Shown piece after piece: positions 58,164 to 61,895 of a stretch of DNA of 64,000 nucleotides. Where the stretch lies: positions 183,371-247,370 of the forward strand of contig UCNG01000008.1 in the NCBI GenBank assembly GCA_900473915.1, read 5' to 3'. The DNA is from Hyphomicrobiales bacterium. Its GTDB lineage: Bacteria; Pseudomonadota; Alphaproteobacteria; Rhizobiales; Rhizobiaceae. Position 1 is the stretch's first letter. The number at the start of each line of letters is the position of its first letter. The notes beneath the pieces are model-generated. The model was not told where the DNA came from. It searched no databases and saw only the letters and a program-made list of their open reading frames with translations. Made by a program: the position numbers and the translations under genes.

Positions 58164-58385
58164 CTAAAGAATGAACCAGGCAGCGACACAGACTAGAATG
58201 AAAAGAACGGTCGCGGAGAAGAAACCACCAGCAAAAAAGCCGAAAGCCATGGCAATCATAAGGGCGACGAGCGTCACCGTGCTCCATTTAACCAGGCCCG
58301 TGAAACCGGCATAAGTTTTCTCATGCTCGGAATAGTCCATCGGTGCGCCAAGTTCAGCCGGAGCCGTCGTATGATGTTCTGCCAT
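58164..58385 (-). CDS. aa3-type cytochrome c oxidase subunit IV
   Basis: 73 residues. The short soluble N-part has the family motif MDYSEHEKTYAGF, followed by two hydrophobic stretches forming the membrane helix region. It is the small alphaproteobacterial subunit that packs against the aa3 oxidase core. The start MAEHHTT at 58385 has GGGTGG upstream; an ATG 15 bases earlier overlaps that site. It is often found upstream of pnt genes, as here. Confidence 0.88.
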   Translation of the reverse strand: MAEHHTTAPAELGAPMDYSEHEKTYAGFTGLVKWSTVTLVALMIAMAFGFFAGGFFSATVLFILVCVAAWFIL

Positions 58386-58583: not shown

Positions 58584-59330
58584 TCATACGCCGAGACCGG
58601 TATATTTCGCGGTCGGCAGAATTGTCAGCGGCACGGAACTGTCCCGCATGTCGGCAAACATGGCGCGGCGCTCATGCGGCTGCGACTTGAAGAACGGAAA
58701 GCGCACCGCCACCGCATCGCGGATATTGCGGATGGGTGCGGCGCCGAGACCGACCCTGATCCCATAGCCTTCATGCTCGCGCGCATCGGCCATGACCGAG
58801 GTGCCGAAAATGCGCTTGTAAAACGCCATATGCTCTGGCTTTACCGAAGCAAGGCATTGATCCGCCGCGAAAAATTCCGAAGCCATCGCTGCGATGCGCA
58901 AGGTGATATAGGGAATGGCCGGATATTCGCTCAACAGCTCCGGATCGGCGGCAAAGCGGGTCGGATCGACAAAATGCATGCCGCTGTTGAGCAGCGGATC
59001 AAGAATATCCGGAAAAAGCGCATAGCTGGTGCCGCGCCGATGATCGGGCGTGATGTGATGGATGCGCAGCGTGCTGACCAATTGCCCGTCCACATGAACG
59101 CCATAGACGAAGGCATGGCTGTCGCGGTCGATATCATCGACAATGGACGGCACTTCCGCCTCGTGCATCACATTGCGCGTGCGGTAGGAACGGTAGCGCA
59201 AGCGGCCGATTTCCTCGAGGTCCTCCGCATGGACGATGCGGCGATATTCCACCCGGTCGAGAAACTGCAACAGCTGTCGCGCGAAGTTGGACAATGGCGG
59301 TTTATCGCCTGTAACAGCTGTATTCGTCAT
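58584..59330 (-). CDS. LuxI/FeeM-like N-acyltransferase
   Basis: 248 residues. The residues that mark acyl-homoserine-lactone synthases line up by eye: Arg45...Tyr49 in LRYRSYRTRN (LuxI R24, F28), Asp66 and Asp68 in VDDIDRDSH (D46, D48), Arg89 in STLRIHHI (R70), and Asp122-x-x-Arg125 in VDPTRFA (E101, R104). The spacing between them also matches within one residue. Related FeeM-type enzymes make N-acyl amino acids instead. The product cannot be told from the sequence. No LuxR-type receptor is in the window. An upstream GTG at 59348 is an alternative start. It lies 258 bases downstream of the GGDEF-EAL gene on the same strand. Confidence 0.7.
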   Translation of the reverse strand: MTNTAVTGDKPPLSNFARQLLQFLDRVEYRRIVHAEDLEEIGRLRYRSYRTRNVMHEAEVPSIVDDIDRDSHAFVYGVHVDGQLVSTLRIHHITPDHRRGTSYALFPDILDPLLNSGMHFVDPTRFAADPELLSEYPAIPYITLRIAAMASEFFAADQCLASVKPEHMAFYKRIFGTSVMADAREHEGYGIRVGLGAAPIRNIRDAVAVRFPFFKSQPHERRAMFADMRDSSVPLTILPTAKYTGLGV

Positions 59331-59588
59331 GCAATCGATTTTCCGCACCCCCGCAAATCAGTGTGCAGAATATGCGCCTTTATCAGCATGTAAAGATATA
59401 ACTTTGTGAGGCGCCTTCTTATAGCCCCGAGATAAACACTTCTTCGCCATAATTCGACGGGACTTTATTGCGCGGAATGCAGGCGATAAGCGCAAAATGC
59501 GCCAATTACCGACCAATTCACGGTTTTGCCTTAATTTGAAAACGCGCCATTTCAAAGCAGATTGGCGCTCGCCCGGATACGGGCCTGA

Positions 59589-61895
59589 TCAGGCGAAGCT
59601 TCGTCCGCTATCGCGCCGCGCCGCTGCCTTCGCGGTCATGGCGGTGATCGCCTCAACCGGCACCGGCATGCCGAGAAGATAGCCCTGAACCAGATCGGCG
59701 CCCGCCGCCACGCGGATCAGCGCGAGTTGCTCCTCGGTTTCAACACCTTCGACCGTCACGCCCAGCCCAAGCTCGTGCGAAAGCTGCGTGACGCCGCGCA
59801 GCAGCATCAGCGAGCGCCGGTCGGTGGTGATGTCGCGCACGAAGGAACGGTCGACCTTCACCTTGGTCAATGGCAATGTATTGAGATAGCTGAGGCTGGA
59901 ATAGCCGGTCCCGAAATCGTCGAGCGCGATATTGATCCCGGCATTCTTGAGCCGCTGCAACACCATCGACGTCTTGTTGCGGTCGGAGATGATGGCGCTT
60001 TCGGTCACTTCCACTTCAAGACGATGCGCCGGAAGTCCCGATTTCTGCAAGGCATTGGCGATATCGCGGGCAATATCGTTGCTCTTCAGGTCGATGGCCG
60101 ACAGATTGACGGAAACCCCGATCCGGTCGCCCCATGACTGGCAGTCCACACAGGCCTGCTCGAGCATGAAGCGGGTAATGTCGGTGATGATGCCCATTTC
60201 TTCGGCAAGCGGAATGAATTCGGTCGGCGGCACGAAGCCAAGCTCCGGATGCTCCCACCGCGCCAGCGCCTCACATGCGACAACGCGCAGGGACTGCGCG
60301 CTGACGATGGGCTGGTAGACGACCTTGATCTCGCCGTGACTGATGGCAAGCCGCAAATCAGCCTTGAGTTTCTGGCGCCCGCGATATTTGGTGTCCATGG
60401 CGTCAATGAAGATCGACCAGGACTTGTCTTCCCTGCTCTTGGCCTCGTAGAGCGCCAGATCGGCATTGATATGCATGCTGCCGACATCGGCCTTTTCGAC
60501 ATTCTCGATCGCCACGCCCGCGCTGATGTCGATGTGAACCTGATCGCCGTCCAGATCGTAAGCGCCGGACACGACATCGGTGATGTGATCCATGACGCCC
60601 GCGACATCGGCCTCGCCGCGCAGGTTGAAGACGAACACCACGAACTCATCGCCGCCGAAACGCGACGTGACGAAACGCTGCGGATCGAGCGAATTCAAGC
60701 GCTCGGCGAACAGGCGCAGCAGCACGTCGCCGGTATGATGCCCCAGCGTATCGTTGACATGCTTGAAATGATTGATGTCGATGACGACGAGCGCCGCCTG
60801 CGTGTCCTTTTTCTGGTTGGTACGCAACGCCCGCACCATGGTCTCGAAATAATTGCGGTTCGGCAGGCCGGTCAGGCCGTCATAGCGCGCCATGTGCTGG
60901 ATGCGCGCTTCCGCTTCCACGCGCTGCGTCACATCCTCGAACATCAGCACCGCCCCTTCATTGAGGGTCTGGTTGCCGATACATTCGATGTAACGCTGGT
61001 TTGAAAGCTGGAAAATATCGCGGGCGCGCCTGCCGAGCAGAAGGTCCTGCATGCGCACATGCACGCTTTTCAGGTCGTTCTGCGGAAACAGCCCCTTCTT
61101 GGCACAGTAGCGCAGAAGAACATCGAGCTTGCGGCCATGCAGCTTGGTATGCTCGGCGATCTGCAGCATCGCCTTGGCCTTGTTGTTGATGACCGCGATG
61201 CGCTGCTGGCTGTCGAACATCAAAAGCCCTTGCGGCATGTTGTTGAGCGCGGCATCGAAACGACCGGCCACGATGGAGAGCCGCCGCTTGCCCATGACGG
61301 CAGCGAAGAGAAACTCGCGCAACCCGTTGGCCATCTGGATGTTGGACAGGAAATACGGGATCAGCAGCAGGCCGATGATGACGTGAAACGGCGTCCCCGC
61401 CAGAATGAGCCCGGCCAGAACCGGGATGAGCGTGCAGGCCGACATCAGGATGACGGCCTTCGCCGACGCATAATTGCGGCCCACGATGGAGACGACAGAG
61501 GCAAGCAGCACGGTCAGGCTGGCAAGTTCGGCAAAGGAATCCCGCAGCACGAAGCTTGAGAAGAAGCACAACATGCCGAGCGTCAGGCACACCGCGGATG
61601 CGCCGACCAGATAGCGCGTTTCCCAACGGTCGAGATCGGCATGGGACAGCGGCTGCTGTTTTGCCTGATCGAACTTGTGCATGTCGAAGATGCGCCCGAC
61701 GGCAATGATCGCGAACACGCCGGCAAAGACCAGATAACGCCAGTCCTCGGTTTTCACATAGATGACGACACAGGCTACAACGTGCGCGAGCAAGCCGAAC
61801 CAGAGCGTCGTACGATTACCATACAGCGCTCTGAGAAAAGATAGCCGCACATCTGCAGGTATCTCAGGTTTACGGCTTTGCCACATTCGATGCAT
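59589..61895 (-). CDS. Membrane GGDEF-EAL protein (diguanylate cyclase / c-di-GMP phosphodiesterase)
   Basis: 768 residues. Six or so membrane spans at about residues 30-200 are followed by a PAS-like region (about 215-325), a GGDEF domain with intact GGDEF at 414-418, and an EAL domain with EAL at 542-544. The EAL domain keeps NLSAIDLKS, TESAII, DDFGTGYSS, KVDRSF and EGVETEEQ, so it should be active. The inhibitory RxxD site five residues before GGDEF is absent, so product inhibition may be lost. Both making and breaking of c-di-GMP are possible. Confidence 0.92.
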   Translation of the reverse strand: MHRMWQSRKPEIPADVRLSFLRALYGNRTTLWFGLLAHVVACVVIYVKTEDWRYLVFAGVFAIIAVGRIFDMHKFDQAKQQPLSHADLDRWETRYLVGASAVCLTLGMLCFFSSFVLRDSFAELASLTVLLASVVSIVGRNYASAKAVILMSACTLIPVLAGLILAGTPFHVIIGLLLIPYFLSNIQMANGLREFLFAAVMGKRRLSIVAGRFDAALNNMPQGLLMFDSQQRIAVINNKAKAMLQIAEHTKLHGRKLDVLLRYCAKKGLFPQNDLKSVHVRMQDLLLGRRARDIFQLSNQRYIECIGNQTLNEGAVLMFEDVTQRVEAEARIQHMARYDGLTGLPNRNYFETMVRALRTNQKKDTQAALVVIDINHFKHVNDTLGHHTGDVLLRLFAERLNSLDPQRFVTSRFGGDEFVVFVFNLRGEADVAGVMDHITDVVSGAYDLDGDQVHIDISAGVAIENVEKADVGSMHINADLALYEAKSREDKSWSIFIDAMDTKYRGRQKLKADLRLAISHGEIKVVYQPIVSAQSLRVVACEALARWEHPELGFVPPTEFIPLAEEMGIITDITRFMLEQACVDCQSWGDRIGVSVNLSAIDLKSNDIARDIANALQKSGLPAHRLEVEVTESAIISDRNKTSMVLQRLKNAGINIALDDFGTGYSSLSYLNTLPLTKVKVDRSFVRDITTDRRSLMLLRGVTQLSHELGLGVTVEGVETEEQLALIRVAAGADLVQGYLLGMPVPVEAITAMTAKAAARRDSGRSFA

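What the first reader, a model, noticed from the sequence alone, without database searches (positions are those of the whole stretch)
58584..59330. LuxI-like acyltransferase without a LuxR partner, beside a c-di-GMP enzyme
All the charged and aromatic residues that define LuxI-type synthases (R24, F28, D46, D48, R70, E101, R104) have counterparts at nearly the same spacing: Arg45, Tyr49, Asp66, Asp68, Arg89, Asp122, Arg125. The Glu-to-Asp change at the E101 site and the larger size lean to the FeeM N-acyl amino acid branch. Acyl-homoserine lactone has been reported from Brucella without a clear LuxI, so this family is a candidate. Its upstream neighbour on the same strand is a GGDEF-EAL protein.
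Basis: partly seen in the sequence, partly recalled or inferred. Interest (0 to 1): 0.75.

Follow-up and report, generated by a model that had tools for sequence, protein, structure and literature searches.

The report
Acyl-synthase gene paired with c-di-GMP sensor
A LuxI-like fatty-acyl enzyme gene sits beside a gene for a membrane sensor that can make and break the messenger c-di-GMP, and the two stay together in many related bacteria, which suggests a chemical-signal maker and its receptor that still needs a laboratory test.

Summary
The gene is real: 248 codons, minus strand, 59330-58584. It belongs to Pfam FeeM (138.9 bits, cut-off 27) with no LuxI-family match at E<=1, yet keeps LuxI charged residues that FeeM itself lacks.

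The neighbour matters more. Upstream lies a gene for a predicted six-helix membrane domain plus PAS, GGDEF and EAL. Of 297 Hyphomicrobiales genomes, 57 carry this FeeM subfamily; in 56 that sensor gene is its neighbour (55 within 500 bp, one with a gene between). Of 19 further genomes with the sensor but no FeeM gene, 14 have an RpfF-like (DSF-synthase-type) gene beside it. RpfF-like (42 genomes) and FeeM-subfamily (57) genes never co-occur.

Best explanation: an acyl-signal synthase and its c-di-GMP receptor, working like RpfF/RpfR with a LuxI/FeeM-fold synthase. The biochemistry is inferred; the product is unknown. Whether it is Brucella's missing AHL synthase cannot be told: no classical Brucella is named among the loci found. 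Structural overlay could not be run.

The parts
58584..59330 (-). FeeM-family acyltransferase (putative acyl-amide signal synthase), 248 codons, with LuxI-type residues R45, Y49, D65, D68, R89, D122, R125
   Evidence: AlphaFold model mean pLDDT 86.4, pTM 0.85
59367..59394 (-). Promoter-like element TTTACA-16 nt-TATTCT, 36 bases before the synthase ATG
   Evidence: Read, placed; a like element in 31 of 40 loci L060-L099. Consensus match only
59589..61895 (-). Putative receptor: membrane domain-PAS-GGDEF-EAL protein, 768 aa from ATG 61895 (orthologues mostly align from the ATG at codon 4, 61886)
61242..61856 (-). N-terminal domain, about aa 14-218: six long predicted helices, no Pfam match
   Evidence: AlphaFold model mean pLDDT 85.8, pTM 0.63; Pfam
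60909..61247 (-). PAS_7 domain, aa 217-329
   Evidence: E 1.2e-18 for the family
60429..60890 (-). GGDEF domain, aa 336-489, motif GGDEF intact
   Evidence: sequence
59664..60359 (-). EAL domain, aa 513-744, motifs EALAR and DDFGTG intact
   Evidence: sequence; these motifs 68 of 68 in FeeM-linked receptors

Best explanation
The two genes are a signal-making and signal-sensing module. The FeeM/LuxI-fold enzyme moves a fatty acyl chain, probably from acyl-ACP, onto an amino-acid-like amine. The acyl-amide is sensed by the neighbouring protein through its membrane domain and/or PAS domain, which shifts its GGDEF/EAL activity and so the cell's c-di-GMP. It works like RpfF/RpfR, with a LuxI/FeeM-fold synthase instead of a crotonase-type DSF synthase. 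Shown: family, key residues, the conserved pairing, and the RpfF-like alternative partner of the same sensor family. Inferred: acyl donor, acceptor, product, sensing, effect on c-di-GMP.
For: Family: PF21926 138.9 bits; hhalign to LuxI E 9e-10; wide profile hits FeeM 2g0b E 1.2e-6 and AHL synthase 3p2f E 2.2e-5. Pairing: 76 of 80 named loci have the receptor gene upstream on the same strand, also where the pnt genes are gone; 56 of 57 subfamily genomes in the order sample; convergent but adjacent in Rhizobium tumorigenes; in 22 genus genomes the 20 with the enzyme are the 20 with the sensor. Partner exchange: 14 of 19 FeeM-less sensor genes lie beside RpfF-like genes, also in Methylobacterium radiotolerans and Sphingomonas parapaucimobilis; no genome of 297 has both synthase types. 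The sensor residues conserved in 68 FeeM-linked receptors are mostly the same in 14 RpfF-linked ones. EAL motifs intact in 68 of 68, GGDEF in 63 of 68.
Against: No activity, ligand or phenotype is shown. Four sets break the pairing: G269 (enzyme, no sensor in about 7.5 kb upstream), L114 and L119 (no receptor in 6 kb upstream), and G304 and Sinorhizobium meliloti (receptor in the pnt setting but enzyme gone). Five of 75 sensor genomes have neither synthase type. The flanks of a FeeM locus and four RpfF loci of one family share only the receptor, so in-place exchange is not shown. The RpfF-like proteins fall below the RpfF equivalog cut-off (164-236 of 550 bits), so their product is also inferred. 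The naive exclusivity P of 6e-5 ignores kinship.
Confidence: 0.6

Rival explanations
1. Output module: the enzyme makes an N-acyl amino acid used as membrane lipid, surfactant or excreted product, and the GGDEF-EAL protein only controls its making or export through c-di-GMP; it is not a receptor for it.
For: FeeM and its relatives are described as N-acyl amino acid synthases (passages of PMC11631085 and PMC8762209). The enzyme has its own promoter-like element, so it need not be co-transcribed.
Against: The same sensor family pairs with RpfF-like genes, whose known relatives make signals (abstract of PMC6361424). No lipid or export gene is constantly present in the loci I looked at.
Confidence: 0.25
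2. AHL synthase: the enzyme makes an acyl-homoserine lactone from SAM, as LuxI does, acting on the c-di-GMP sensor or on unlinked LuxR proteins, and is the missing AHL synthase of the Brucella genus.
For: LuxI-type R24, D-x-x-D, R70 and R104 are all kept while FeeM lacks them. 33 of 35 genus genomes have the gene against 3 of 35 with PF00765. All 22 genus genomes have Autoind_bind genes. A Loktanella relative is annotated as AHL synthase. The synthase of classical Brucella is unknown (passages of PMC12713405).
Against: No PF00765 match; no Trp34 counterpart and Asp for Glu101; partner is not LuxR; G014 and G015 lack the gene but keep Autoind_bind genes (G014 is only 72% complete); a screen of 15 B. 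melitensis candidates was negative (composition not seen); presence in classical Brucella not testable here.
Confidence: 0.1
3. Passive neighbours: the genes are adjacent only through shared descent of a stable chromosomal stretch.
For: In Brucellaceae, Phyllobacterium and Hoeflea loci the pnt genes also stay in place.
Against: The pair persists without the pnt setting, convergently, with a hydrolase gene inserted, and both genes are absent together in G014 and G015. Divergent FeeM relatives sit beside genes such as aconitase.
Confidence: 0.05

Closest known systems
RpfF/RpfR, BDSF system (abstract and passages of PMC6361424)
   Same: Acyl-signal synthase gene beside a PAS-GGDEF-EAL receptor gene; a related sensor family here pairs with RpfF-like genes.
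   Different: Synthase is of LuxI/FeeM fold by profile, not crotonase; receptor starts with a six-helix membrane domain, not the FI domain reported for RpfR; ligand unknown.
FeeM N-acyl amino acid synthase, PDB 2g0b (PF21926)
   Same: Pfam family; profile match E 1.2e-6.
   Different: FeeM has Glu94/Gln97 at the D122/R125 sites and in the alignment lacks R45, D65, D68 and R89.
LuxI-type AHL synthases (PF00765), e.g. TofI 3p2f
   Same: R24, F28 or Tyr, D-x-x-D, R70 and R104 positions kept; 3p2f E 2.2e-5 with the wide profile.
   Different: No PF00765 match at E<=1, no Trp34, Asp for Glu101, no LuxR nearby.
LuxM/LuxN and RpfF/RpfC (recalled, not tested)
   Same: Acyl signals read by membrane receptors rather than LuxR.
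   Different: Those receptors are histidine kinases; the synthase families differ.

Membership tests
FeeM family (PF21926) | Profile score above curated cut-off | tested here: met
   138.9 bits against 27
FeeM family (PF21926) | Active-site residues of FeeM itself (Glu94, Gln97) | tested here: not met
   Asp122 and Arg125, 61 of 61; FeeM letters
FeeM family (PF21926) | N-acyl amino acid product from acyl-ACP | not testable with these tools
   Needs enzyme assay
LuxI AHL synthase (PF00765) | Profile match | tested here: not met
   No match at E<=1
LuxI AHL synthase (PF00765) | R24, F28, D-x-x-D, R70, R104 (recalled set) | tested here: met
   Aligned; conserved, with Tyr or Phe at F28
LuxI AHL synthase (PF00765) | E101 and W34 (recalled set) | tested here: not met
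   Asp122 61 of 61; no Trp at the W34 column
LuxI AHL synthase (PF00765) | Use of SAM, lactone product | not testable with these tools
   Needs enzyme assay
RpfF/RpfR-type module | Synthase gene beside a PAS-GGDEF-EAL gene | tested here: met
RpfF/RpfR-type module | Crotonase-fold synthase | tested here: not met
   FeeM family here; RpfF-like only in the 14 alternative genomes
RpfF/RpfR-type module | Soluble N-terminal FI domain on the receptor | tested here: inconclusive
   Model shows six long hydrophobic-looking helices; FI was not searched for as such
RpfF/RpfR-type module | Receptor binds the synthase's product | not testable with these tools
   Needs binding and c-di-GMP assays

The most novel reading that the evidence does not exclude
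A LuxI/FeeM-fold enzyme makes a diffusible acyl-amide read by a membrane PAS-GGDEF-EAL receptor: a LuxR-free class of cell-cell signalling spread over Hyphomicrobiales, whose receptor family takes either this synthase or an RpfF-type DSF synthase, and which is also the source of the acyl signals reported from Brucella.
Probability: 0.1. Interest if true: 0.95.

Novelty: new variant of a known kind. Interest (0 to 1): 0.74.

Why it matters
If true, LuxI/FeeM-fold enzymes signal through c-di-GMP and not only through LuxR regulators, in many soil, plant-associated and marine bacteria, mostly without an assigned LuxI in the genus studied. One sensor family paired with two unrelated acyl-enzyme families gives a direct way to find the ligand. 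It also names a testable gene family for the open question of acyl signalling in the Brucella genus.

Tried and rejected
Rejected: Asp66 as the LuxI counterpart; Glu-to-Asp as a FeeM trait; Asp122 as a strict mark of GGDEF linkage, since G613's FeeM gene has Glu yet overlaps into a PAS-GGDEF operon while Sulfitobacter has Asp beside a kinase; chance adjacency.

Led nowhere: NCBIfam for the enzyme. PDB searches with the protein or narrow profiles gave only 3p2f at E 0.11, 6wns at E 1.3 after a de novo protein and 3p2f at E 0.081; two single divergent members found nothing useful. The sensor profile found only PAS parts of other proteins at low E. Flanks of the FeeM and RpfF loci of one family share only the receptor gene. 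Receptor tree of 99 rows: FeeM label needs 2 changes. After dropping 5 long-branch rows, 10 of 14 non-adjacent RpfF-genome rows and 23 near-duplicate or broken rows, 61 rows need 1 change, support 91.5, not starred; I counted G304's receptor on the FeeM side there. The trees are unrooted for this question. Paper searches listed no description of the pairing; only open-licence PMC papers are held, and (40 of 555 listed) was swamped by unrelated uses of the word. Craig 2011 and Van Wagoner 2006 were seen only in reference lists.

Left out of counts: PF21926 matches under 119 bits; GGDEF-only sensor proteins and G189's 985-aa protein (43 bits). L064's gap is meaningless (broken receptor frame).

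Full report
WHAT IS THERE. The coordinates hold one open frame on the minus strand, 248 codons from ATG 59330. The closest named relatives are Ochrobactrum-type Brucella (B. oryzae and B. pseudintermedia, 99% identity). The window's own assembly is not held, so the species is not established.

FAMILY AND RESIDUES. Pfam files the protein under FeeM, 138.9 bits against a cut-off of 27, with no other family at E<=1. hhalign against 24 LuxI-family proteins gives probability 96.5 and E 9e-10 and pairs R45, Y49, D65, D68, R89, D122 and R125 with the LuxI set (LuxI names recalled). In 61 sequences, the window's included, R45, D65, D68, R89, D122 and R125 never vary. A wide profile of 17 sequences finds FeeM 2g0b (E 1.2e-6) and AHL synthase 3p2f (E 2.2e-5). 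FeeM has Glu94 and Gln97 at the D122 and R125 sites (Table 1 passage of PMC9654057) and in the alignment no counterpart of R45, D65, D68 or R89, though Y49 is kept. All 8 divergent PF21926 members have Glu at the D122 site. The subfamily is FeeM by profile but nearer LuxI in charged residues. The model is confident (mean pLDDT 86.4, pTM 0.85), but it could not be overlaid on known structures.

THE NEIGHBOUR. The gene directly upstream (59589-61895, minus) has PAS_7, GGDEF and EAL domains. Its N-terminal part is modelled as six long helices (mean pLDDT 85.8, pTM 0.63) with no Pfam match. Among 68 FeeM-linked receptors the EAL motifs are intact in 68 and GGDEF in 63, so phosphodiesterase is the steadier output.

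PAIRING. Of 80 named loci, 76 have this gene upstream on the same strand: 60 with a gap of 111-408 bp, 16 with more. L090 and L094 are contig ends; L114 and L119 are true misses. Devosia, Afipia, Bradyrhizobium and Bosea loci have no pnt genes there but keep the pair. In an even sample of 297 genomes of the order, 57 carry the subfamily. In 55 the receptor lies 96-494 bp upstream on the same strand; G001 has a gap of about 1.8 kb (L080); G269 has none. In the genus, the 20 of 22 genomes with the sensor are the 20 with the enzyme; G014 (72% complete) and G015 (99%) lack both. In Rhizobium tumorigenes the two genes are convergent. In 386 genomes of the class only G001, G070 and G613 match at 1e-20, the first two from this order; the plasmid search adds Rhodobacterales relatives.

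THE OTHER PARTNER. Of 75 genomes with a full-length sensor protein (at least 650 aa and 73 bits), 19 lack the FeeM gene. In 14 of these an RpfF-like crotonase gene is directly beside it: downstream on the same strand in 5, convergent in 6, upstream in 3. The other five are G103, G114, G135, G246 and G304. Of 14, 13 pass the NF006452 cut-off and G310's is just below (166 of 177 bits). Ten ORFs beside the sensor genes were scanned: nine full-length ones score 299.5-388 bits on NF006452 and 164-236 on the RpfF equivalog (cut-off 550); the tenth, a short second crotonase-like ORF at L221, scores 48. L209 matches solved RpfF 3m6m at E 1.5e-62; L216 aligns to it with both glutamates that I recall as catalytic. 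Named cases are Methylobacterium radiotolerans and Sphingomonas parapaucimobilis. RpfF-like genes (42 of 297) and the FeeM subfamily (57 of 297) never share a genome; naive P 6e-5, kinship ignored. Of 15 sensor positions conserved in over 85% of FeeM-linked receptors, 13 have the same residue in at least 13 of 14 RpfF-linked ones; E92 and L224 are mixed there. Of the 28 RpfF genomes without this sensor I examined 20; 15 have another GGDEF-EAL-type gene within about 5 kb.

RELATED SETTINGS. FeeM-family genes on Sulfitobacter and Loktanella plasmids lie near histidine-kinase and methyltransferase genes. In G613 the FeeM gene overlaps a weakly ICMT/PEMT-like gene, which overlaps a PAS-GGDEF gene. 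Divergent FeeM relatives L194-L203 have no GGDEF-EAL hit in about 7 kb; neighbours scanned at four of them are aconitase (three), a zincin, a decarboxylase-like gene, a methyltransferase, a tRNA synthetase and one without match.

MECHANISM. The simplest account is a signal synthase and its c-di-GMP receptor, as for RpfF and RpfR, where the acid binds the PAS domain and controls c-di-GMP (abstract and passages of PMC6361424). Here a LuxI/FeeM-fold enzyme would supply an acyl-amide. A promoter-like element before the synthase, seen in 31 of 40 loci, suggests it can be expressed apart from the receptor. No biochemical step is shown. Against an obligate pair: G304 and Sinorhizobium meliloti keep the receptor without the enzyme in the pnt setting, so the receptor may have other inputs.

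THE BRUCELLA AHL QUESTION. A 2025 review says the AHL synthase of classical Brucella is unknown and that genomes lack LuxI and LuxM homologues (passages of PMC12713405). This family is in 33 of 35 genus genomes, PF00765 in 3 of 35. Against: no PF00765 match, no Trp34, no LuxR neighbour, and G014 and G015 keep Autoind_bind genes without the enzyme. A screen of 15 B. melitensis candidates was negative (passages of PMC2898763); I could not see whether this gene was among them. I give this reading 0.1.

VERDICT. The deep pairing with a sensor family that otherwise takes an RpfF-like partner is the finding worth following. I found no description of it in ten paper searches of open-licence papers. 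I rate it a new variant of a known kind.

Noticed in passing
window 59331-59588; L061:4545-5783, L080:4553-5782, L070:4543-5760, L077:4577-5794: In 16 of 76 named loci the gap between receptor and synthase exceeds 1.5 kb; in the four read it holds a 405-412 aa serine-hydrolase (beta-lactamase-fold, PF00144 for L061) gene. The window's short gap seems to keep the last bases of that gene, as after a deletion.
   Followed up: partly
L060 (B. oryzae, G007) and L064 (B. cytisi, G002): The receptor frame is broken in these assemblies, perhaps by sequencing error; left as found.
   Followed up: no
L286:5001-7322 (Sinorhizobium meliloti Ak57) and L208: Receptor gene kept beside pnt genes while the acyltransferase is missing; an orphan receptor worth testing.
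   Followed up: no
L284:3464-6257, L285:1718-5151, L290:3188-6247: Rhodobacterales plasmids carry FeeM-family genes near sensor histidine kinases and methyltransferases, possibly another synthase-receptor layout.
   Followed up: partly
window 58164-58382: Small unlisted gene between the acyltransferase and pntA: aa3-type cytochrome oxidase subunit IV (PF07835).
   Followed up: yes
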